Below are positions 29,066-40,960 of a stretch of 64,000 nt of DNA, piece by piece (position 1 is the stretch's first letter; each line of letters begins with the position of its first letter). Under the pieces are notes generated by a model, which did not search any database, was not told the DNA's origin, and was given only the letters and a program-made list of their open reading frames with translations. The stretch lies in assembly GCA_003994795.1 (NCBI GenBank), contig AP018269.1:1194725-1258724 (forward strand). Reading direction: 5' to 3'. The stretch is from Cylindrospermum sp. NIES-4074. Its GTDB lineage: Bacteria > Cyanobacteriota > Cyanobacteriia > Cyanobacteriales > Nostocaceae. The position numbers and the translations under genes are program-made.

Positions 29066-29325
29066 AGCAATTAGTTGTTGAGAATTGCGAGTTTCTTAAA
29101 CGTAAATAATTACCTGTAATCTGAAGAGATAGAAATTTGGTGGTAAGTTTCACCTGATGATACAAAACGAGTTAAGGGTTCAGCCTATAAACTCCTAAAT
29201 TCAGCTTAAATATCTTCAACTCCCTTTCCATCTGGCTAACGGCGCATGATGCTTAATGTAGCGATCTACCGATGGAGGGAGCGAAGTAATTAGTTCCATT
29301 GCTACTAGAACCCCTGATGCAGCTC

Positions 29326-31239
29326 ATGAAAATTTTGTTGGTAGAAGATGACATATTGCTCAGTACGGTACTAGCAGAGTTGCTGAGGGCAAATCATTAC
29401 GCTATTGACTTAGCAAACAACGGACAAACTGGGCTAGACCTAGCGATGTCGGCTGAGTATGACCTGATTTTGCTGGATTGGCTAATTCCTAAACGGGACG
29501 GTATTAGCTTGTGTCAGCAGCTGCGATCGCAAGGCTACCACAAACCAATTCTGTTGTTAACTGGGAAAAATACCAATGCAGATATTATTGCCGGGTTAGA
29601 TGCGGGAGCAGATGATTATGTCATCAAGCCTTATGACCCGGAAGCATTACTAGCAAGAATTCGGTCTTTGTTGCGACGCAGTGGGGCAAGTCCTACAGAA
29701 AGCGTCTCTACCACACACTATGCTCATGCATCATCCAAGTTAACTTGGGAAAATCTCAGTTTAGACCAAATCTCCGGCAAAGTAACTTATAACGAGCAGG
29801 TCATTCCCCTCACAGCCACAGAATACAATCTGCTGGAATTGTTTTTGCAAAACCCCAATCGCGTCTTTAGCCGGCGGGTAATTTTAGATCGGCTTTGGGG
29901 ATTTGATGATGCACCGATTGAAAATGCAGTGACAACTCATATCAAAGATTTACGCAAAAAACTGAAAGCAGGAGGATTCACCCAAGACTTCCTTGAGACG
30001 GTGTATGGTATGGGCTATCGTTTAAAGCCAGCCCCAGATCATCCTATTGCTGGTCATACGGCAACTTCAGCACAACAGGATACTCTCAAAAAACCACGCA
30101 CCAAAGATTTAGCCTCCGTTAATCGAGTATTAGCACGATTTCGCGATTCCTTTGGTCAGCAAGTTGCGGTACTAGAGCAAGCAAAAACTGCGCTCTTGGC
30201 AGGGAAGTTACACCAGGAGTTACAGCAGCAAGCATTGCATGAAGCTCACAAGCTAGCAGGCTCGATGGGAACATTTGGATATCCAGAAGGTTCTAGGCTG
30301 GCACGGGAATTAGAGTATTTGCTGATGCATAATCGCACCCTAGCAGATGATGAGATTACCAAGTTTTCTCAACTGGTAACGGCATTGCAACAGGAGTTAA
30401 CAAAGTCACCTGTCACCGTAACCGCCCAACCTGCCCCCCTGCGCCAGACTCATCGCGTGCTGGTGATTGATGATGATACTATACTCACCGAGCGGTTGCT
30501 GGCTCAAGCAGATGCTTGGGGAATGCGAATGAAAATTGCTCCCGATTTAGCAACTGCTCGTTCGCGCCTGGCCTTGGCAACTCCTGACGCAGTTGTACTG
30601 GATTTGAGCTTTTCTGGTACAGAAGAAGATGGATTAACACTGCTGCGAGAATTGGCAGCACAATTTTCCCCAGGAGAGGCTACCTCAACGCTAAATATTC
30701 CAGTAGTTGTATTAACCGGACGCGATCGCTTGACTGACCGATTGGCCGTTTCCCGGTTAGGGGCGAAACAATTCCTGCACAAACCTACTACAACCGAGCA
30801 GATTTTTCAAGCGATCGCTCGTGTCCTACCTCAAGGCAAAACTTCAGAAGCGAAAGTCTTAATCGTAGACGATGACCCTGTAATACTGGCTGGATTATCG
30901 GCATTACTAACTCCTTGGGGGCTGGAGGTGACAACTCTTCGAGAACCGCAGCAATTTTGGGAAGTGCTGATAGCAACATCGCCAAACTTAGTATTACTGG
31001 ATTTAGAAATGCCGATAGTGAATGGGTTAGATTTGTGTCAAGTGGTGCGGCAGGACGCTCAATGGGGTGATTTACCTGTTTTGGTAGTAACAGCCCATAC
31101 TGATGCAGAGTCCCTTCAGCAAGCCTTTGCCGCCGGAGCCGATGATTTCATCACCAAACCAATATTAGGGCCGGAACTTGTGACACGAGTACTTAGCCGA
31201 CTGGAAAGAACGCGACGGGTTAGGCTACCCCAGAGGTGA
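29326..31239 (+). CDS. Multidomain response regulator REC-wHTH-HPt-REC-REC
   Basis: A 637-residue protein from ATG 29326 (MKILLVEDD; ATG 29317 and TTG 29299 are in frame upstream). Domains: OmpR-type receiver 1-117 with phospho-acceptor Asp51 (LILLDWL); winged-helix DNA-binding domain about 135-230 (LTATEYNLLELFLQNPNRVF); HPt domain about 265-365 with the phospho-histidine motif HEAHKLAGSMGTFG; receiver 2 about 380-505 (AVVLDLSFSG); receiver 3 about 510-632 (LVLLDLEMPIVNG). All three acceptor Asp residues and the HPt His are present, so a whole phosphorelay may be in one chain. The stop overlaps a possible GTG start of the giant kinase. Confidence 0.9.
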   Translation: MKILLVEDDILLSTVLAELLRANHYAIDLANNGQTGLDLAMSAEYDLILLDWLIPKRDGISLCQQLRSQGYHKPILLLTGKNTNADIIAGLDAGADDYVIKPYDPEALLARIRSLLRRSGASPTESVSTTHYAHASSKLTWENLSLDQISGKVTYNEQVIPLTATEYNLLELFLQNPNRVFSRRVILDRLWGFDDAPIENAVTTHIKDLRKKLKAGGFTQDFLETVYGMGYRLKPAPDHPIAGHTATSAQQDTLKKPRTKDLASVNRVLARFRDSFGQQVAVLEQAKTALLAGKLHQELQQQALHEAHKLAGSMGTFGYPEGSRLARELEYLLMHNRTLADDEITKFSQLVTALQQELTKSPVTVTAQPAPLRQTHRVLVIDDDTILTERLLAQADAWGMRMKIAPDLATARSRLALATPDAVVLDLSFSGTEEDGLTLLRELAAQFSPGEATSTLNIPVVVLTGRDRLTDRLAVSRLGAKQFLHKPTTTEQIFQAIARVLPQGKTSEAKVLIVDDDPVILAGLSALLTPWGLEVTTLREPQQFWEVLIATSPNLVLLDLEMPIVNGLDLCQVVRQDAQWGDLPVLVVTAHTDAESLQQAFAAGADDFITKPILGPELVTRVLSRLERTRRVRLPQR

Positions 31240-31292
31240 TTGCGTCACCACCCAAAGCTGATTTAATACGGATTTACGGAGAAGAAAGAATC

Positions 31293-34200
31293 ATGAGACT
31301 GGATCAGCGATTATTAGCCTACAGTGTTGCAATTGGTTCAACGGCGATCGCCTTACTGCTAACTCTCTGGCTAGAACAGTTGCTATCTAGAACAATTGGT
31401 GCATTTTTCTACATCGCTATCATTGTAAGTTCGTGGTATGGTGGCTTTCGACCAGGGCTTGTTACAGTTGTCCTTTCGACACTGGCAATCAATTATTTAT
31501 TTATCCCTCCGCGATATCAATTTTCGATCGAGCAACCAGAGGAAGTATTACGGCTAAGTATTTTTCTACTGGTTGCCTTGACAATCAATCTGCTCACTAG
31601 TAATCTTCACCACAGCCAAAACAAAATTAAACAACTAAGCCAACAACTGGCTCAAGAAAATGCCGAGCAATTGCAGATGGCTTTGTCGGCGGCACAAATG
31701 GGGATGTGGGATTGGAATATGGTGACAGGAGAGATTAATTGGTCACCAGAACACGAACAATTATTTGGTTTGGCTCCTGGTAGCTTTGATGGTAGATATG
31801 AAACCTTTGATGCCTGCCTGCATCCCGATGATCGCCCAGCACTCAACCAAGCACTACAACAGGCGCTACAAACTCATAGCACCTACCAGCATGAGTTTCG
31901 CGTAATTTGGGCAGATGGTAGCATTCACTGGGTCGAAGCACGAGGAAAGACATTTTATAACCAAGCGGGTGAGCCTGTGAGGATGACGGGAACTATCATG
32001 TCCATTGACGATCGCAAACAAGCACAAGGACAGCTGGAACAGCAATTTGAGCAACAACGCTTAGTGATGGAGATGACCCAGCGCATCCGGCGATCGCTCA
32101 ATTTACAAGATATCTTGCAAACCACTGTTGATGAAGTGCGGCAGTTTCTGGGGTGCGATCGCGTGACCGTCTTCCAATTTTCTCCTGGCTGGGGTGGAAC
32201 GATCGTTGTCGAGTCTGTTGCATCTGAATGGATGCCGATTTTACCACTTGAGATTTACGACCCTTGTATTGGTGAAGAGAACGTTGAACCCTTTAAACAA
32301 GGCTTAATCACGGCAAAAGCTGATATTTATCATGCCGGAATTAGTCCCTGCCACGTTGAATTTCTGGCAAGTCTCCAAGTGAGGGCAAATCTGGTGGTTC
32401 CCGTTTTCTTAGGAGATGAATTATGGGGGTTATTGGCGGCTCATCACTGTGCTGCTCCTCGTGAGTGGCAATCCTCAGAAATTGAACTCCTGCGGCAGTT
32501 AGGAGCACAGGTGAGTATTGCTATCCAGCAAGCAGCTTTGTTTGAACAGGCACATACAGAACTGACAGAGCGCAAACAAGCTGAACTAGCGTTGCAGGAA
32601 AATGAACAAAAACTGCAATTGTTCATCAAATATTCCCCCGCCAGTATTGTCATGTTTGATTCCCAGATGCGTTACATTGCAGCAAGCCAGCGATGGATTG
32701 ATGAATTTCGTCTCACTTCCACAGAATCGGTAATTGGGCGATCGCACTACGAGCTTTTTCCCAATCTTCCAGAGCCGTTGAAGCAAAGCCATCAACGTGG
32801 TCTGGCAGGGTTCATTGAGAAATGTGATGAAGATTTGTTCGTTCATTCAAATGGTTTACAGCAATGGTTCCGGTGGGAAGTTCGCCCCTGGTATCGCATC
32901 AATGGTGACATTGGTGGCATCATTCTCTTTTCTGAAGATATTACAGAGCGCAAACAGGCGCAAATTGCTCTGCAACAAATGAATGCCGAACTTGAGCAAC
33001 GAGTAGCCCAGCGAACAGCACAACTAACCCAAGCAAATGATCACCTACTAGAAAAGATCATAGAGCAGCAACAAACCCAACTCATACTTATAGAGCAAGC
33101 GCAACTACTGGATCTAGCACACGATACCATTATTACCCGCGACTTGAACGGCATGATTTCCTTCTGGAATGAAGGAGCCGAGTATATGTACGGCTGGAAA
33201 AAAGCGGAAGCATTAGGACAAATCTCACATATTCTTTTAAAAACTCAATTTTCTCAACCATTAACAGAGATTGAGACAGAACTCTTAGAAAAAGGCTATT
33301 GGGAAGGAGAACTTACCCATTTCCAGCGGGATGCTCAACCCATCACTGTAGCTAGCCGTTGGGTTTTACAAAAAGATCATGCTGGTAAACCGATGAAGAT
33401 CCTAGAAATCAACAATGATATTACCGAGCGTAAACAAGCAGAAGCAACTTTACAGCAGTATGTCTATGAAATTGAGGATCTGTACAATAATGCACCCTGT
33501 GGTTATCACTCCCTGGATGCAGAGGGTAATATCATTCGGATTAATAATACAGAACTCAACTGGCTAGGGTATAGCCGTGATGACATTCTTCTCAAAAAGT
33601 TTTCAGATTTCTGCACCTTGAATAGTCAACAGGTGTTTCAGGATAACTTTCCTCAGTTTAAGCAACAGGGTTGGATTAATAATCTGGAGTTTGAAATTGT
33701 CAGCAAAGATGGCACAACCCGATGGATAAGCTTGAATTCCACAGCAATCAAAGATGAAGCAGGTAATTTTGTGACGAGCCGCTCAACGTTGTTTGATATT
33801 AGCGAGCGAAAAGTTGCCGAAGCTTTACTGCAAAAATATGAGCGCATCGTATCCAGTACCAAAGATGGTATTGCACTGCTGAATCGTAATTACATTTATC
33901 AAATCGTTAATCAAGCTTACCTGGACTGGTGTAACAAATCCTATGCCGAAGTTCTAGGATATTCCGTGAGGGATGTTGTGGGTGAAAATTTATTTGATAG
34001 TTTCATCCAGCCAAGGTTAGATAGATGTTTGGCTGGAGAAACAATTCAGTATGAAAGATGGTTTGAATACCCCAATTTAGTACCGCAATTTATGAGCGTT
34101 ACTTATACACCTTACTGTGAAGTAGACGAAAGCATTTCTGGCGTTATTGTTAGTCTGCGCGATTTGACTCGACTCCAACAGGCAGAACAAATTCTGGAAC

Positions 34201-35639
34201 TTCAGGCTGTCATTACCCGCAACATGGCGGAAGGCATTTGCTTAGTCAGAGCCGATAATGGAGTTATTGTCTATGCCAATCCTAAATTTGAGCAGATGTT
34301 TGGCTATGACTCTGGTGAACTCAATGGTCAGCACGTTTCTATTGTCAACTATGCCACTGAATCGGTAACTGCTGAAGATGTAAATCAAGCCATTCGGTCT
34401 GCCGTTTTACAAAACAGTGAAGCTACTTATGAAGTCCATAATGTCAAAAAAGATGGTACTCCATTTTGGTGTAGTGCCACGACTTCTGTATTCAAGCATA
34501 TTGACTACGGCGATGTTCTAGTTGCGGTTCACCAAGATATCACCGATCGCAAACGCATCGCTGAAGCTTTACGCCAAAGTGAAGAAAAGTTTCGCCAACT
34601 TGCGGAAAATATCCAGGCTGTTTTTTGGATGACAGATATTCAAAGTCACCACGTTCTATATGTGAGCAATGCCTACGAAACTATCTGGCAAAGGAGTTGT
34701 GAACGTCTTTACCAAAACTCTGCAAATTGGTTAGATGCAATTCACCCAGAAGATCGTCAGCGGATCGAAATTGCATTCATGGAACAGATCAGCACAGGGC
34801 ACTACGATGTTAAGTATCGCATTATCCGCCCCGATGGTTCAATCCGTTGGATTCGCGATCGCGCTTTCCCCATCAAAAATGAAGTCGGAGAGTTAGTGCG
34901 GGTTGCTGGAATTGCGGAAGATATCACTGAACTACAGCAGATTGAGTTGATGAAGAGTGAGTTTATTGGCATTGTCAGTCACGAACTCCGCACTCCTTTA
35001 ACAGCAATTCGAGCAGCTATGGGTCTACTACAAACTGGTATCTACGACAAAAAACCAGACAAGTTCAAGCGGATGATTGAAATTGCAGCCGTCGATAGCG
35101 ATCGCTTAGTGCGCTTAGTCAACGATATTCTGGATTTGGAACGCTTAGATTCGGGTCGCGCTGTCCTAGAAAAAACAACCTGTAATACGGCTGATTTGAT
35201 TGAGCAAGCAGTGGAGGGAGTGCAAGCGATCGCTAAACCGCAAAATATTACCTTTAATATCCACCCTACTAATGCTCAAGTTTGGGCTGCGGCTGATACC
35301 ATTATTCAAACTCTCACCAATCTGTTAGGGAATGCGATTAAATTCTCACCTGCCGATGCCGCTATTACTGTGAGTGTCCAACAGCAAACAGATCACGTAC
35401 TGTTCCAGATCACCGATCAAGGACGAGGTATCCCCGCAGAGAAGTTAGAAGCTATCTTTGGACGATTTCAGCAAGTAGATGCCTCTGATGCTCGTACCAA
35501 AGGCGGCACAGGCTTGGGATTGGCAATCTGCCGTAGTATTATTGATCAGCACGGTGGGCAAATCTGGGCTGAGAGTACTGTTGGTGTCGGCAGCACGTTT
35601 TTCTTCACTCTGCCACTGCCACCAGAGGAGATCAGATGA
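31293..35639 (+). CDS. Membrane-linked multi-PAS/GAF sensor histidine kinase, probable cyanobacteriochrome
   Basis: 1448 residues from ATG 31293, which has GGAG eight bases upstream; GTG 31236, overlapping the previous stop, is the alternative. Domains: KdpD-like DUF4118 transmembrane region 1-110; PAS about 127-250; GAF about 266-417; five or six further PAS domains about 436-1216; HisKA with phospho-His1230 (IVSHELRTPL); HATPase_c about 1330-1446 (DQGRGIP, GGTGLGLAICRSI). The GAF domain has Cys353-His (ISPCHVEFLASLQVRANLVV) and WGLLAAHHCAAPREWQ, the signature of bilin-binding cyanobacteriochromes, plus Cys325 in an Asp-Pro-Cys motif 28 residues upstream. The next gene, a receiver, overlaps by 4 bp. 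Confidence 0.9.
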   Translation: MRLDQRLLAYSVAIGSTAIALLLTLWLEQLLSRTIGAFFYIAIIVSSWYGGFRPGLVTVVLSTLAINYLFIPPRYQFSIEQPEEVLRLSIFLLVALTINLLTSNLHHSQNKIKQLSQQLAQENAEQLQMALSAAQMGMWDWNMVTGEINWSPEHEQLFGLAPGSFDGRYETFDACLHPDDRPALNQALQQALQTHSTYQHEFRVIWADGSIHWVEARGKTFYNQAGEPVRMTGTIMSIDDRKQAQGQLEQQFEQQRLVMEMTQRIRRSLNLQDILQTTVDEVRQFLGCDRVTVFQFSPGWGGTIVVESVASEWMPILPLEIYDPCIGEENVEPFKQGLITAKADIYHAGISPCHVEFLASLQVRANLVVPVFLGDELWGLLAAHHCAAPREWQSSEIELLRQLGAQVSIAIQQAALFEQAHTELTERKQAELALQENEQKLQLFIKYSPASIVMFDSQMRYIAASQRWIDEFRLTSTESVIGRSHYELFPNLPEPLKQSHQRGLAGFIEKCDEDLFVHSNGLQQWFRWEVRPWYRINGDIGGIILFSEDITERKQAQIALQQMNAELEQRVAQRTAQLTQANDHLLEKIIEQQQTQLILIEQAQLLDLAHDTIITRDLNGMISFWNEGAEYMYGWKKAEALGQISHILLKTQFSQPLTEIETELLEKGYWEGELTHFQRDAQPITVASRWVLQKDHAGKPMKILEINNDITERKQAEATLQQYVYEIEDLYNNAPCGYHSLDAEGNIIRINNTELNWLGYSRDDILLKKFSDFCTLNSQQVFQDNFPQFKQQGWINNLEFEIVSKDGTTRWISLNSTAIKDEAGNFVTSRSTLFDISERKVAEALLQKYERIVSSTKDGIALLNRNYIYQIVNQAYLDWCNKSYAEVLGYSVRDVVGENLFDSFIQPRLDRCLAGETIQYERWFEYPNLVPQFMSVTYTPYCEVDESISGVIVSLRDLTRLQQAEQILELQAVITRNMAEGICLVRADNGVIVYANPKFEQMFGYDSGELNGQHVSIVNYATESVTAEDVNQAIRSAVLQNSEATYEVHNVKKDGTPFWCSATTSVFKHIDYGDVLVAVHQDITDRKRIAEALRQSEEKFRQLAENIQAVFWMTDIQSHHVLYVSNAYETIWQRSCERLYQNSANWLDAIHPEDRQRIEIAFMEQISTGHYDVKYRIIRPDGSIRWIRDRAFPIKNEVGELVRVAGIAEDITELQQIELMKSEFIGIVSHELRTPLTAIRAAMGLLQTGIYDKKPDKFKRMIEIAAVDSDRLVRLVNDILDLERLDSGRAVLEKTTCNTADLIEQAVEGVQAIAKPQNITFNIHPTNAQVWAAADTIIQTLTNLLGNAIKFSPADAAITVSVQQQTDHVLFQITDQGRGIPAEKLEAIFGRFQQVDASDARTKGGTGLGLAICRSIIDQHGGQIWAESTVGVGSTFFFTLPLPPEEIR

Positions 35640-36019
35640 CTATCAAACAAGTGTTAATTGTGGATGATGAAGAACGAATCCGCGAACTGGTACAAGCTTG
35701 TCTGGAAGACTTGGGAGGATGGGAGACGCTGACGGCTGCATCAGGACAGGAAGGATTAAAAATCGCTCAGACAGAATCTAATATTGATGCCATTTTGCTT
35801 GATGTGTCTATGCCTGACATGGATGGCTTTGCTGTCTACGAGCAACTTCAGACAAATGTCTCAACCCAATCAATCCCAGTGATTCTATTAACAGCGAAAG
35901 TCCTACCAAGCGATCGCGCCCGTTTCGCCCAGATGGGAATTGCCGGCGTGATCACCAAACCCTTTGAACCAACCTCCATTTGCGAGGAAGTGGCTAACAT
36001 TCTTGGGTGGGACGAGTAA
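35636..36019 (+). CDS. CheY-like single-domain response regulator
   Basis: A 127-residue receiver domain without output domain: acidic pocket in VLIVDDEERI, phospho-acceptor Asp in AILLDVSMPDMDG, Thr in ILLTAK and Lys in VITKPFEP. The ATGA overlap with the giant kinase makes this its likely phosphorylation partner. It is followed by an A+T-rich region with tandem 11-bp repeats. Confidence 0.9.
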   Translation: MTIKQVLIVDDEERIRELVQACLEDLGGWETLTAASGQEGLKIAQTESNIDAILLDVSMPDMDGFAVYEQLQTNVSTQSIPVILLTAKVLPSDRARFAQMGIAGVITKPFEPTSICEEVANILGWDE

Positions 36020-36117: not shown

Positions 36118-36492
36118 ATGTATATGAATACTTGTCAGGTTGAACGGTCTAAAACACCTATAACCTTTACTTTGTTGCCATTCCACAGTAGTACTTTGGG
36201 TGAAATTAAAAATAATAGGTTTGGCATTTCGGCTTGGTATCCACAAACCGTGGTGATTCGTGCTATTACTCCCCAACAGCAGAGGCAAATTGCAGACAAT
36301 CCTCTGAGTCAGCGAGAACTCTGTGTTTTGAAAATGATTGTCGATGGCAATAGTAATCTGGCTATTGCTCAAAAACTATGTATAAAAATGGGAACTGTCA
36401 AAACCCACGTTCGGAATATTTTATGCAAGCTCAATGTAAGCGACCGCGCTCAGGCTGCTGTGGTGGCACTACGTTCTGGCTTAGTGGATTAA
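36118..36492 (+). CDS. LuxR-type HTH transcriptional regulator
   Basis: A 124-residue protein with a C-terminal LuxR/GerE HTH (residues about 62-122: LSQRELCVLKMIVDGNSNLA, KMGTVKTHVRNILCKLNVSD). The short N-terminal part (about 55 residues) is not a receiver; it is too short for one and lacks the acidic residues. It is therefore an orphan HTH output protein that may work with the neighbouring stand-alone receivers. Two in-frame ATGs are available (36118 and 36124). Confidence 0.85.
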   Translation: MYMNTCQVERSKTPITFTLLPFHSSTLGEIKNNRFGISAWYPQTVVIRAITPQQQRQIADNPLSQRELCVLKMIVDGNSNLAIAQKLCIKMGTVKTHVRNILCKLNVSDRAQAAVVALRSGLVD

Positions 36493-36540: not shown

Positions 36541-36960
36541 ATGATTATTTTGAAGGAGGTAAACATAACCACAAAAACGATATTGCTCATCGACGATGAA
36601 GTTAGTGTGCGGGAAATTGTAGAACTCTGCCTACAAGATTTAGGTGGCTGGAATGTAGTCGTCGCCGATTCACCTTTAAATGGATTGCACAGGGCAGCAA
36701 TTGAGCATCCTGATGCGATCATACTGGATTTATCACTGCGTGGCATGAATCTTTTGAACTTTATGGACAAACTCAGAAATAATCCAGAAACTCAAGCAAT
36801 TCCGGTTGTACTGCTGAGTGCTAAGGCACGATGGCTAGATTCGCAAATTCTCCGACAATATCAGATTGCAGGTGTAATCCTCAAACCTTTTGATCCAGTT
36901 ACACTTGCTATTAAGATTGCTATACTGCTGGGTTGGGATTCAATGCCAATTCGTGATTAA
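36541..36960 (+). CDS. CheY-like single-domain response regulator
   Basis: A 139-residue receiver: ILLIDDEVSV, phospho-acceptor Asp in AIILDLSLRGMN, Lys in VILKPFDP. It is about 45% identical by eye to the receiver at 35636, so the two probably arose by duplication. A very strong Shine-Dalgarno-like AAGGAGGT lies inside the frame at 36553-36560, with no ATG, GTG or TTG at the right distance; the codon five bases on is ATA. The start at 36541 itself has no clear ribosome site. Confidence 0.85.
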   Translation: MIILKEVNITTKTILLIDDEVSVREIVELCLQDLGGWNVVVADSPLNGLHRAAIEHPDAIILDLSLRGMNLLNFMDKLRNNPETQAIPVVLLSAKARWLDSQILRQYQIAGVILKPFDPVTLAIKIAILLGWDSMPIRD

Positions 36961-37237: not shown

Positions 37238-40200
37238 ATGCTCCTCAACCGTCTATCTAATACTGAAATCGACTCCCAGCAAATTTTGTATCAAATTAGG
37301 CTGCTCATTGCGCGAATTCACCAGTCATTGGAATTGAGTGAAATTCTCAAGGTCATTGTCAGTGAAGTCAAAAAAACCTTAGAAAGCGATCGCGTCGTTA
37401 TCTATCGCTTTTTGGCAGATGGAGATGGAGTCATAGTTGAAGAATCTGTAAATCCCGAATGGAAAGCACTTCAGGGGCAATTAATTTATGATCCTTGCTT
37501 ATTCGCTAAATGGTTAGAGAAATATCAAGCCGGACAGGTTAGCGTTTTGGAAGACATAGATGCTAAACCACTTGACACCTGTTACAAAGAGCTATTAACC
37601 AGATTGCAGATTCGAGCTAATTTAGTTGTACCAATTTTGGTCAATACTCAAGATATTGATGGGATTTCTAGTTCCAAGCCTCGTCTGTGGGGCTTACTGA
37701 TTGCTCACCAGTGTAGTAGTCCGCGCCAGTGGAGTGCTTTAGAAATTGAGTTTCTTCAACTAGTAGCCACAGAACTAGGGATTGCCCTCCAGCAAGTCGA
37801 ACGGTATCAACAATGGGCTAAACATAACCATAAGCGATCGCCGCAATTTCATCAAAACCTCAAGAATATAGCAGTTCAGCCAAAGCAGAATTTTAGGGTT
37901 GCCGAAAGAATTTTATACAAGAAGCAGAAAGAGTCCATTACAACAGAAACAACGTCTCCAAAGAATATATCAGTTGCAGACTTGATGGCATTTGACCGAT
38001 TACAATCTCCCATTTGGATTTATGATATTCAGAACTTGCAGATGTGGTGGGTAAACAAGGCAGCGCTACATATTTGGAATGCTCAAAGTCGAGAAGAATT
38101 GCTTAATCGCAACTTCAGTGATGTTTCTGAGTCCACTCACATTCAACTGCAACACTACTTGCATGAATTTCAGCAAGGAAAAACAATCGCCGAAAACTGG
38201 ACATTTTATCCAGAAGGAAAACCTGTTTCTGTTCACTGTCTCTGTTCTGGAGTGCCAATTGAAGATGGGCGCATGGCGATGTTGGTGGAAGGAACAGCAG
38301 AAGTTGTTGAGCAGATTGATCAAGAAATACTTAGGGCAATTGAAGCACTGCGTCACACCACCTTGATCATCTCGCTTTACACGCTGGATGGTGTACCGTT
38401 AATGCAAAACCCGGCGGCCCTTCACTGTTATGGGGATACCCTGCACCCCAACTCGTCAACCGAGAATATTTTCCTGCGCCACTTTGTTGACAAAAGTGTG
38501 GGACAACAAGCTATGGAAGCGATTAAGTTAGGTGAGATGTTCAGCATTGAAACCGAGGTGTTGACAACTGAGGGGATTCGATGGCATGGGATGGATATAC
38601 GATGCACCCGCGATCCTGTAACGGGTAATTCTATTATTTTCGTCAATGAAAAAGACATAACCAAGCAGCAAACTGCTCTACAAGAACGCCAGCGTGCAGA
38701 AGAGGAATTGCGCTGGCAAGAAACTTTGCTGCGTTCTATGACTGATACTTCTTTGCTAGCATTTTATGTGGTTGACAATCGCACAGATGAAATCCTCTAT
38801 TTTAATCACCGCTTGTGTGAAATTTGGGGAATTGAACATCTAGAACCCCAGATGCAACTTGGTGCTTTAAAAAATAATGACATCATTCCTGACTGCATAC
38901 CTTCAATTGCTGATTTGCCTGCATTTATCCAATCCTGTAAACCTTTGCAGTCTGAAGAAAATCGTTGCACGATTGAGGATGAAATTGTATTTGTAGATGG
39001 GCGCACAATTCGCCGTTTTTCTAGCCAAATTCGAGATGGTCGCGATCGCTATTTTGGGCGACTATACATTTTTGAAGACATCAGCGATCGCAAGCAGTTA
39101 GAAAAATCACTTCGTCTCGCTGATTATTCCTTTGAACGTATTGGTCTTTCTGGAACTTGGATTGACAAAAATGCGCGGATCTTACGCGTGAATGATGCCA
39201 CTTGCAAAAATCTCGGTTACTCCCGTGCTGAGTTAGAGTCAATGCAAGTTTATGATTTTGATCCCGATTTTCCTAAGGAAGCATGGGCAGAAACTTGGCA
39301 AGCGCTCAAACAGCAAAAGCATCTGACCTTGATTTCACGACATCAAAGAAAAGATGGTCGGTGCTTCCCAGTGGAAATAACGATTAACTATGTGGAGTTT
39401 GATGGTGAAGAATATAATTTCGCCTTTTCAACAGATATAAGCGAACGTATCCAGGCAGAAACTGCGCTCAGAGAAAGTGAACAACGCTATCGTTCTGTAA
39501 TCACAGCAATGGCGGAAGGTATTGTCCTACAGCAAGCCGATGGGGAAATTACAGCCTGTAACGACAGTGCCGAAAGAATTTTAGGGCTAACTACTGACCA
39601 AATGATGGGACGAACTTCTATCGACCCGCGCTGGCAAGCTATTCACGAAGATGGTACTTCTTTTCCAGGGGAAACTCATCCTGCTATCGTCACCTTACGC
39701 ACCGGACAACCCCAATTTAATGTGATCATGGGAGTTGAAAAACCTGATAGTAGCCTGTCTTGGGTTTCCATTAATTCTCAACCACTGTTTAAACCAGATG
39801 AATCAAAACCTTATGCAGTGGTGGCATCGTTTACAGATATTACAGTCCGCAAACAGGCAGAACTCGCATTGCAACAGCAGACAGAACGGGAACGGATGAT
39901 TTTGGCGATCGCACAACATATCCGTCAGTCTTTGGATTTGGAGCAAATTTTGAACACAACTGTTGCTGAGGTACGACATTTTCTGCAAACCGATCGCGTC
40001 GTCATCTACCGCTTTAACCCAGATTGGAGTGGTGTTGTTGTCACGGAGTCTGTGGCATTCGGTTGGCAACCGATTTTGAATAGGGAAATTATAGATAACT
40101 ACTTTGTAGAAACGCAGGGACGGTCTTATCAACAGGGTATGGTTAAAGTCATTCCAGATATCTACACCCCTGGATTTAGTGATTGTTATGTCGAGTTATT

Positions 40201-40960
40201 GGCACAGTTGCAAGTCAGAGCCAAGCTAGTTGTACCAATTTTACAAGGCAATGCTCTTTGGGGTCTTTTGGTTGCTCATCATTGCAGTGCCCCGCGTGAG
40301 TGGCAACCTTGGGAAAGTCAACTGCTTCAGCAATTGGCTACACAGGTGGCGATCGCTATTCAGCAATCAGAGCTTCATCAACAATTGCAGCTAGCTAACC
40401 AGCAACTGCAAAATTTAGCTATGGTTGATCAATTAACTCAAATCGCCAATCGCCGATGTTTTGATAGCCAGCTTGATTGCACATGGGGACATCTTTTACG
40501 AGAACAAGGTTGTCTGTCACTACTTCTATGCGACATTGATTTTTTCAAACAATATAACGATACTTATGGTCATGCCGGAGGAGATGATTGTTTGCGCCTT
40601 GTTGCCCAAGCTTTCAAACAAACTATCAAACGTTCTACAGATGTAGCTGCTCGTTATGGCGGGGAAGAATTTGTCGTTATCTTACCGAATACTGATAGTG
40701 ATGGTGCTCTTCAGGTTGCCCAAGAAATTCATGAAGCTATCCAACAGCTAAATATTCCCCATGCTGCATCGGTTGTAAAGCAGCACGTCACCTTGAGTAT
40801 CGGAATTGCAACGGTAATTCCTACTTCTGATCTGCTTCCTTTGCAGCTGATTGAGGCAGCAGATCAGGCTCTTTATCAAGCTAAAGCACAGGGGCGTAAT
40901 CGTTCTTGTATAAATAGACTGTCTCAGGAAGTAGGCGATCGCGAATCAAGTGCTTGTTGA
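37238..40960 (+). CDS. GAF/PAS diguanylate cyclase with two probable cyanobacteriochrome GAF domains
   Basis: 1240 residues. Domains: GAF1 about 15-190; a chain of about five PAS domains 250-880; GAF2 about 890-1050; GGDEF about 1070-1230. The cyclase motif is GGEEF at 1141-1145, with the inhibitory-site RSTD at 1132-1135, so an active, product-inhibited diguanylate cyclase is expected. No EAL domain. GAF1 has Cys115-Tyr (DTCYKELLTRLQIRANLVVP) and an upstream Asp-Pro-Cys87, 28 residues apart. GAF2 has Cys983-Tyr (SDCYVELLAQLQVRAKLVVP) but Tyr955 at the upstream Cys position (DNYF). Both resemble bilin-binding cyanobacteriochrome domains. It should make c-di-GMP in response to light; this is inference from motifs. 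Confidence 0.9.
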   Translation: MLLNRLSNTEIDSQQILYQIRLLIARIHQSLELSEILKVIVSEVKKTLESDRVVIYRFLADGDGVIVEESVNPEWKALQGQLIYDPCLFAKWLEKYQAGQVSVLEDIDAKPLDTCYKELLTRLQIRANLVVPILVNTQDIDGISSSKPRLWGLLIAHQCSSPRQWSALEIEFLQLVATELGIALQQVERYQQWAKHNHKRSPQFHQNLKNIAVQPKQNFRVAERILYKKQKESITTETTSPKNISVADLMAFDRLQSPIWIYDIQNLQMWWVNKAALHIWNAQSREELLNRNFSDVSESTHIQLQHYLHEFQQGKTIAENWTFYPEGKPVSVHCLCSGVPIEDGRMAMLVEGTAEVVEQIDQEILRAIEALRHTTLIISLYTLDGVPLMQNPAALHCYGDTLHPNSSTENIFLRHFVDKSVGQQAMEAIKLGEMFSIETEVLTTEGIRWHGMDIRCTRDPVTGNSIIFVNEKDITKQQTALQERQRAEEELRWQETLLRSMTDTSLLAFYVVDNRTDEILYFNHRLCEIWGIEHLEPQMQLGALKNNDIIPDCIPSIADLPAFIQSCKPLQSEENRCTIEDEIVFVDGRTIRRFSSQIRDGRDRYFGRLYIFEDISDRKQLEKSLRLADYSFERIGLSGTWIDKNARILRVNDATCKNLGYSRAELESMQVYDFDPDFPKEAWAETWQALKQQKHLTLISRHQRKDGRCFPVEITINYVEFDGEEYNFAFSTDISERIQAETALRESEQRYRSVITAMAEGIVLQQADGEITACNDSAERILGLTTDQMMGRTSIDPRWQAIHEDGTSFPGETHPAIVTLRTGQPQFNVIMGVEKPDSSLSWVSINSQPLFKPDESKPYAVVASFTDITVRKQAELALQQQTERERMILAIAQHIRQSLDLEQILNTTVAEVRHFLQTDRVVIYRFNPDWSGVVVTESVAFGWQPILNREIIDNYFVETQGRSYQQGMVKVIPDIYTPGFSDCYVELLAQLQVRAKLVVPILQGNALWGLLVAHHCSAPREWQPWESQLLQQLATQVAIAIQQSELHQQLQLANQQLQNLAMVDQLTQIANRRCFDSQLDCTWGHLLREQGCLSLLLCDIDFFKQYNDTYGHAGGDDCLRLVAQAFKQTIKRSTDVAARYGGEEFVVILPNTDSDGALQVAQEIHEAIQQLNIPHAASVVKQHVTLSIGIATVIPTSDLLPLQLIEAADQALYQAKAQGRNRSCINRLSQEVGDRESSAC

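What the first reader, a model, noticed from the sequence alone, without database searches (positions are those of the whole stretch)
37238..40960. Diguanylate cyclase carrying two probable bilin-binding GAF domains of different type
Seen: GAF1 has Asp-Pro-Cys87-Leu and Cys115-Tyr, 28 residues apart. GAF2 has Cys983-Tyr but Tyr955 (DNYF) where the second cysteine would be. Both show the LQVRA/LQIRA-N/K-LVVPI and WGLL-A-H-x-C-S-x-P-R-x-W blocks of cyanobacteriochromes. The output is GGEEF with an intact RSTD inhibitory site. Inference: one chain may integrate two colours, one two-Cys and one single-Cys sensor, into c-di-GMP production. Two different photosensors framing five PAS domains on one cyclase is unusual to me.
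Basis: partly seen in the sequence, partly recalled or inferred. Interest (0 to 1): 0.7.

Follow-up and report, generated by a model that had tools for sequence, protein, structure and literature searches.

The report
Two-colour light-sensing c-di-GMP enzyme
This cyanobacterial gene encodes one long enzyme that probably uses two different light-sensing pigments to control a bacterial signalling molecule; the layout is shared with related cyanobacteria, and what colours it sees has to be measured.

Summary
ORF 37238-40960 (+) encodes 1240 aa: GAF1 (Asp-Pro-Cys87-Leu, Cys115-Tyr), a PAS region, GAF2 (Asp-Asn-Tyr955-Phe, Cys983-Tyr), GGEEF with RSTD. Both GAFs match solved cyanobacteriochromes. 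The genome has PcyA as its only detected bilin reductase, so phycocyanobilin is the likely pigment. A light-regulated diguanylate cyclase is a good inference; light control is untested. The layout is not unique: 24 ORFs (window included) carry both GAF types, 20 with all three bilin cysteines. GAF2 needs a corrected reading: Tyr955 is normal for its clade (35 of 37 rows); the odd residue is Tyr984 beside the canonical Cys (His in 31 of 37). GAF2 is sister to the NpR3784/PPHK group but lacks that group's Val and beta1-notch Phe. It carries a clade-wide Lys (36 of 37) aligned with a Lys of RcaE (recalled as part of its protochromic triad), so its colour cannot be read off a known class. GAF1's clade contains none of seven references. 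Next door is a histidine kinase with its own two-Cys GAF; this order recurs in 6 of 10 ortholog regions. Cph2 is a precedent for two photosensors on one c-di-GMP enzyme. New variant of a known kind; moderate interest.

The parts
37238..40960 (+). Whole gene: GAF1-PAS region-GAF2-GGDEF protein, 1240 aa
37283..37798 (+). GAF1 (aa 16-187), two-Cys (DXCF-like) cyanobacteriochrome GAF; its clade holds none of the seven references
37496..37498 (+). Cys87, second Cys, in Asp-Pro-Cys-Leu; position 88 is Phe in 24 of 27 rows of the clade
37580..37582 (+). Cys115, canonical bilin-binding Cys, 28 residues after Cys87; followed by Tyr (Tyr in 24 of 27 rows)
37973..38677 (+). Probable PAS 1 (sub-threshold Pfam) and segment 2 (no Pfam match), aa 246-480
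38705..39103 (+). PAS 3 (aa 490-622)
39113..39457 (+). PAS 4 (aa 626-740); matched in only 3 of 30 related ORFs (L023, L050, L059)
39470..39865 (+). PAS 5 (aa 745-876), matched in 30 of 30 related ORFs
39878..40366 (+). GAF2 (aa 881-1043), single-Cys cyanobacteriochrome GAF, sister to the NpR3784/PPHK group
40100..40102 (+). Tyr955 of Asp-x-Tyr-Phe, clade norm (35 of 37)
40184..40189 (+). Cys983 (canonical) and Tyr984 (His in 31 of 37; same column as engineered H87Y of miRFP670nano)
40223..40225 (+). Lys996, 36 of 37 in the clade; same column as the RcaE Lys 13 residues after its canonical Cys
40406..40915 (+). GGDEF domain (aa 1057-1226)
40631..40672 (+). RSTD inhibitory site (aa 1132-1135) and GGEEF active-site motif (aa 1141-1145)
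29299..31239 (+). Response regulator with three REC matches, Trans_reg_C and Hpt, upstream of the kinase
31236..35639 (+). Neighbouring histidine kinase: DUF4118, PAS domains, GAF with Asp-Pro-Cys344-Ile and Cys372-His, HisKA, HATPase_c
35636..36019 (+). Stand-alone REC, overlapping the end of the kinase gene
36118..36492 (+). GerE/LuxR-type protein without a REC match
36541..36960 (+). Stand-alone REC, directly upstream of the cyclase

Best explanation
A bichromatic cyanobacteriochrome diguanylate cyclase. GAF1 and GAF2 each attach phycocyanobilin, through Cys115 and Cys983. GAF1, with a second Cys (Cys87), probably isomerises it to phycoviolobilin and senses blue/violet against a longer band. 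GAF2, single-Cys, stays on phycocyanobilin and senses a pair of bands in the red-to-green range; the exact colours are not predictable from sequence. GAF2 sits at a nearly fixed distance from GGDEF and acts on it directly through the connecting helix; GAF1 acts from a distance through a variable PAS chain, as a second input. Product binding at RSTD gives feedback. Shown: domains, residues, their conservation, the PCB pathway genes. Inferred: bilin binding, colours, sign of the response, and that the two inputs combine at one output.
For: GAF matches to solved cyanobacteriochromes. Of 24 ORFs with both GAFs, both GAF1 Cys are kept in 22, the GAF2 Cys in 21, all three in 20. Bilin Asp kept: Asp953 in 34 of 37 GAF2 rows, Asp85 in 22 of 27 GAF1 rows. 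One Fe_bilin_red match in the genome, named PcyA by NCBIfam (371.9 bits, cut-off 206), and two haem oxygenase matches. 33 of 36 ORF rows listed have GGEEF (the other three are two separate GAF1 ORFs and L058); RxxD is there in 30 of the 33. From the start of the GAF2 profile match to GGEEF there are 254 residues in 24 of 32 ORFs and 253-255 in 30 of 32, while PAS 1-4 are absent or different in many relatives. Precedents: the two-Cys sensor of Cph2 activates its adjacent GGDEF in blue light, and SesA has blue-light-induced cyclase activity (PMC5812497, passages; PMC8846402, passages).
Against: No spectroscopy or enzyme data. The window departs from its own clades at two pocket positions: Leu88 (Phe in 24 of 27) and Tyr984 (His in 31 of 37). 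Bilin Cys are missing in 7 of 37 GAF2 rows and in 2 of 27 GAF1 rows, and GAF1 is a separate ORF in L012 and L046, so light sensing is dispensable in parts of the family. GAF1 is the least conserved domain: 56-73% identity to the window in 21 of the 23 dual-GAF relatives or L032 listed, against 73-86% for PAS 5 in 22 of the same 23. RxxD is lost in L023, L025, L036. The structure model failed.
Confidence: 0.6

Rival explanations
1. Only one GAF is a working photosensor in this strain. GAF2 (with Tyr984) or GAF1 (with Leu88) binds bilin but hardly photoconverts, or no longer binds; the protein is a one-colour sensor with a spare or structural GAF.
For: Tyr984 equals H87Y, one of the changes that helped turn NpR3784 into the fluorescent miRFP670nano, and His1014 equals its N117H, said there to prevent rotation of ring D (PMC6336887, passages; mapping). 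Repeated loss of bilin Cys in relatives.
Against: His1014 is normal in the clade (36 of 37), so it cannot itself mark loss of switching; Cys-Tyr is found in 23 of 27 GAF1 rows and 22 of 103 other GAF rows. All three Cys are intact in the window.
Confidence: 0.22
2. Light is not the main input. The PAS domains or the neighbouring kinase and RECs set cyclase activity, and the GAFs are relics.
For: PAS 5 is closer to the window than either GAF in most of the 30 ORFs compared; a two-component cluster lies next to the gene in 6 of 10 ortholog regions; PPHK, GAF2's best PDB match, is named a phosphorylation-responsive photosensitive kinase (PMC11480761, passages).
Against: All three bilin Cys kept in 20 of 24 dual ORFs; the neighbouring kinase has a two-Cys GAF of its own.
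Confidence: 0.15
3. The GAFs bind something other than bilin.
For: GAF domains in general bind many ligands (general knowledge).
Against: Canonical Cys, bilin Asp and the WGLL-A-H block, and best PDB matches to cyanobacteriochromes.
Confidence: 0.03

Closest known systems
Cph2 of Synechocystis PCC 6803 (PMC5812497, passages)
   Same: Two separate bilin sensors, one of them a two-Cys cyanobacteriochrome, in one chain with GGDEF output
   Different: [quoted passage not shown] Here the single-Cys GAF is next to GGDEF, the two-Cys GAF is N-terminal, PAS domains lie between, no EAL
SesA (Tlr0924)
   Same: Blue/green cyanobacteriochrome fused to a GGDEF that makes c-di-GMP
   Different: Only one cyanobacteriochrome GAF
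PPHK (6OAP) and the NpR3784 lineage
   Same: Closest solved relatives of GAF2; Asp-x-Tyr-Phe without second Cys; one supported clade (99/95)
   Different: GAF2 clade has Ile951 for Val, no Phe at 922, Lys996 where PPHK has Asn, and in this strain Tyr984 for His
TePixJ and other DXCF cyanobacteriochromes
   Same: GAF1 has Asp-Pro-Cys and the canonical Cys in the same alignment columns
   Different: GAF1 falls in its own clade (100/95), Cys-Tyr instead of Cys-His, and Leu88 instead of Phe in this strain
RcaE (protochromic green/red)
   Same: Lys 13 residues after the canonical Cys, as in 36 of 37 GAF2 rows
   Different: GAF2 keeps the bilin Asp (Gln in RcaE) and lacks the Glu and Leu that I recall as the rest of the triad

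Membership tests
Cyanobacteriochrome (GAF1) | Canonical Cys in a GAF matching solved cyanobacteriochromes | tested here: met
   Cys115; 6oap E 7.6e-32, TePixJ 1.5e-25
DXCF subfamily (GAF1) | Asp-x-Cys-Phe motif | tested here: inconclusive
   Asp-Pro-Cys present, Phe replaced by Leu88 in this strain; Phe in 24 of 27 rows of the clade
DXCF subfamily (GAF1) | PCB-to-PVB isomerisation and second-Cys adduct | not testable with these tools
   needs spectra
Cyanobacteriochrome (GAF2) | Canonical Cys in a GAF matching solved cyanobacteriochromes | tested here: met
   Cys983; 6oap E 1.7e-63
XRG red/green (GAF2) | WXDXXL motif (PMC11284453, part 1) | tested here: not met
   Ile951-x-Asp953-x-x-Phe956; AnPixJ, NpR6012g4 and Slr1393 fall elsewhere in the tree
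NpR3784 lineage (GAF2) | Groups with NpR3784/PPHK | tested here: met
   40-row clade of 37 GAF2 rows + PPHK + miRFP670nano + L056, 99/95
NpR3784 lineage (GAF2) | Conserved Val at the Trp position (PMC11284453, passages) | tested here: not met
   Ile951; Ile 35, Phe 2 of 37
NpR3784 lineage (GAF2) | beta1-notch Phe (PMC5240096, passages) | tested here: not met
   Val922; no Phe in 37 rows. That column 922 is the beta1 notch is my inference from nano F25C and Phe in PPHK
Biliverdin-accepting type (GAF2) | BV4 residues, AnPixJg2 H293Y, F308T, H318Y, I336V (PMC8156171, passages) | tested here: not met
   Tyr955 and Val998 agree, Lys970 and Phe980 do not
Protochromic green/red (GAF2) | Glu-Leu-Lys triad (recalled) | tested here: not met
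   Asn954, Tyr984, Lys996: Lys only
Diguanylate cyclase | GG[DE]EF with RxxD | tested here: met
   GGEEF 1141, RSTD 1132; Pfam 3.9e-54
Diguanylate cyclase | c-di-GMP synthesis | not testable with these tools
   enzyme assay needed

The most novel reading that the evidence does not exclude
GAF2 heads a so far unmeasured lineage of cyanobacteriochromes. It keeps the bilin Asp, has a clade-wide Lys at the RcaE protochromic position, and lacks both the XRG Trp and the NpR3784 beta1-notch Phe. It may therefore switch by bilin protonation or show a red-shifted photoproduct rather than the ordinary red/green cycle. In this strain the His-to-Tyr change makes it a natural counterpart of an engineered fluorescent protein, with weak switching. 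Coupled to GAF1 it would make the cyclase a ratio sensor of two bands. The same GAF1-PAS-GAF2 block also stands ahead of a histidine-kinase motif (L171), as a portable two-colour module.
Probability: 0.25. Interest if true: 0.6.

Novelty: new variant of a known kind. Interest (0 to 1): 0.42.

Why it matters
If both pigments work, a single cyclase compares two colour bands inside one polypeptide, a natural case for asking how two photosensors are added up at one output. The family supplies ready controls: relatives that lost one sensor's Cys, that lack PAS units, or that have a kinase motif in place of GGDEF. The GAF2 clade tests whether a Lys at the protochromic position changes the photocycle when the bilin Asp is kept, and whether a natural His-to-Tyr change does what the engineered one did in miRFP670nano.

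Tried and rejected
Biliverdin binding by GAF2: considered because Tyr955 coincides with BV4 H293Y; rejected as a filing, since only 2 of 4 BV4 positions agree. My first recollection of the BV4 set (note) was wrong and was replaced by the paper's set.

Photosensing decay in the window's own subclade: the GAF1 tree put the window with L019, L020, L023, L031 (98/91), in which pocket residues are lost; but the PAS5+GGDEF tree puts it with L037 (90/86), and losses concentrate in another clade (L019, L020, L021, L022, L023, L026, L036; 97/96). I do not claim it for the window, nor exclude it.

Structure prediction of aa 1-1200 with 12 orthologs: mean pLDDT 41.9, pTM 0.29; discarded, no fold search made. 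PHROGs on the first PAS segment: nothing.

Rows dropped: nine loci repeat loci (identical ORFs). In one search, L012 and L046 (GAF1 in a separate ORF) and L032 (no GAF2 row passed the length filter) are not among the 24 dual ORFs. In one search, L033, L034, L039 fell out (no PAS5 match) and L058 was not given: 34 rows. One search used a GAF2 clade of 30 rows because of midpoint rooting, so L022, L028, L029, L030 are not in its table; the 37-row clade drawn was used. The scan used patterns including DNYFVETQ, is biased to such GAF2s, and kept the best 80 of 414 confirmed stretches. One search fetched ten of the matches listed.
Full report
What is there. Domain order: GAF1 16-187, PAS-type segments 246-876, GAF2 881-1043, GGDEF 1057-1226. 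Three PAS segments pass Pfam cut-offs, one is just below, one has no match, so 'five PAS' is only partly confirmed.

Are the GAFs bilin sensors? By sequence, very likely. GAF1's best solved matches are PPHK (7.6e-32), an RcaE-like chain (8k9o, 2.5e-29) and miRFP670nano (1.4e-26); GAF2's are PPHK (1.7e-63) and miRFP670nano (3.6e-49). The genome holds two haem oxygenase matches and one bilin reductase match, which NCBIfam names phycocyanobilin:ferredoxin oxidoreductase (371.9 bits, cut-off 206). So phycocyanobilin is the expected pigment. Binding itself is not shown.

Relatives. 26 of 192 genomes of the family, the own genome included, have a match to the whole protein at E <= 1e-150; the two other genomes listed as same genus have none. 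GAF1 alone has matches at E <= 1e-40 in 56 of 388 genomes of the class. A scan of named genomes with GAF2 gave 79 loci, nine of them repeats. Among the ORFs (window included) carry both a GAF1-clade and a GAF2-clade domain: Nostoc and relatives, Phormidium, Planktothrix, a Leptolyngbya and others. Both GAF1 cysteines are kept in 22 of the 24, the GAF2 cysteine in 21, all three in 20. 23 of the 24 have GGEEF. The exception, L058 (1527 aa), is probably the same gene as L171 (1527 aa, contig of the same length), in which a histidine-kinase motif was found. Of ten further GAF1 matches read with more of their ORF, three carry GAF2-type domains by BLAST (L162 with GGEEF, L165 and L171 without), two have GAF1, PAS 5 type and GGEEF but no GAF2 (L163, L168), and five showed only the GAF1-type match among the five segments compared. 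So the pairing is an established, patchily distributed architecture, not an oddity of this genome.

Modularity. From the start of the GAF2 profile match to GGEEF there are 254 residues in 24 of 32 ORFs and 253-255 in 30 of 32; L031 (248) and L059 (269) differ. PAS 5 and GGDEF are matched in 30 of 30 related ORFs compared, while PAS 1-4 are missing or different in many; PAS 4 of the window is matched in 3 of 30. In the alignment of 13 proteins the consensus at PAS 4 is another PAS-looking sequence (my reading). This fits GAF2 as the direct controller of the cyclase through the connecting helix and GAF1 as a remote second input; both are inference.

GAF1. In a tree of 167 GAF domains plus seven references, GAF1 forms a clade of 27 rows (100/95) that holds none of the seven. 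TePixJ and Slr1393g3 sit on long branches there and the bootstrap had not fully settled (correlation 0.977), so deep placements are rough. Commonest residues in the clade are DPCF and Cys-Tyr; the window has DPCL, and Leu occurs at that place in 3 of 27. Both Cys are kept in 25 of 27 rows. A blue-absorbing dark state with PVB is the ordinary expectation for a two-Cys DXCF domain (PMC11284453, part 1 of 6 read), not a measurement.

GAF2. Its 37-row clade (100/100) joins PPHK, miRFP670nano (engineered from NpR3784) and L056 at 99/95, apart from the AnPixJ-NpR6012g4-Slr1393 group. Yet it lacks two features given for the NpR3784 lineage: Val at the Trp position (PMC11284453, passages; here Ile in 35 of 37) and the beta1-notch Phe (PMC5240096, passages; here no Phe in 37 rows, with the column identified by my inference). 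It has Lys996 in 36 of 37 rows, against Asn in 24 of 27 GAF1 rows and Lys in 2 of 27 GAF1 and 3 of 103 other rows, two of which look RcaE-like. The same column holds the Lys of RcaE. That this Lys belongs to the protochromic triad is recalled; PMC9415938 (passages) mentions the triad and the Leu next to Cys without residue numbers. I therefore do not file GAF2 as NpR3784-type or XRG.

The odd residue. In the clade it is Tyr in 35 of 37 rows. What stands out is Tyr984, next to the canonical Cys: His in 31 of 37, Tyr in 3, and Cys-Tyr together only in the window and L028. The same change, H87Y, is called critical in the evolution of the fluorescent miRFP670nano (PMC6336887, passages). This makes weaker photoconversion of GAF2 in this strain a concrete rival, but Cys-Tyr is found in 23 of 27 GAF1 rows and 22 of 103 other GAF rows.

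Neighbourhood. Upstream lie a multi-domain response regulator, a histidine kinase with a GAF of its own (Cys344 and Cys372, again 28 apart), a REC, a LuxR-type protein and a second REC. The order response regulator, kinase, REC, REC, cyclase is found in 6 of 10 ortholog regions fetched (L122, L124, L126, L127, L129, L130); four (L123, L125, L128, L131) lack it. The LuxR-type gene passes the same threshold in 2 of the 10. A kinase GAF at 60% identity or more was found in 10 of 18 loci examined, nine distinct since L043 and L126 are the same place, and all keep both Cys. A link between the kinase pathway and the cyclase is suggested by this order only.

Known comparison. Cph2 is described as a four-colour sensor with two photosensory modules fused to GGDEF and EAL, and SesA as one cyanobacteriochrome GAF with GGDEF (PMC5812497, passages; PMC8846402, passages). 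Searches of the held library listed no paper that I recognised from title or abstract start as describing this architecture; most of the listed papers were not opened, so this is weak evidence of absence. The primary papers on NpR3784, PPHK, Cph2 and RcaE were not read.

Verdict. Confirmed observation; interpretation right in direction, with corrections. A new variant of a known kind, useful mainly because it sets up clear tests and because GAF2's clade does not fit the classes against which it was checked.

Noticed in passing
31236-35639: Histidine kinase with a two-Cys cyanobacteriochrome-type GAF (DPC344I, C372-H) in a recurring cluster with response regulators and the cyclase.
   Followed up: partly
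39113-39457: PAS 4 is matched in only 3 of 30 related ORFs (L023, L050, L059), as if swapped.
   Followed up: partly
L012 from 1444 and L046 from 3304: GAF1 stands in a separate short ORF (232 and 211 aa) before the rest of the cyclase.
   Followed up: no
L022, GAF2 region: GAF2 has a gap at the canonical Cys, in a clade where GAF1 or bilin Cys are lost repeatedly.
   Followed up: partly
L162-L171: GAF1-type domains head ORFs with different downstream domains; L163 and L168 have GAF1, PAS 5 type and GGEEF without GAF2.
   Followed up: partly
own genome, a match row: A reported open frame of 24957 residues is an artefact of a run of N, not a giant gene.
   Followed up: yes
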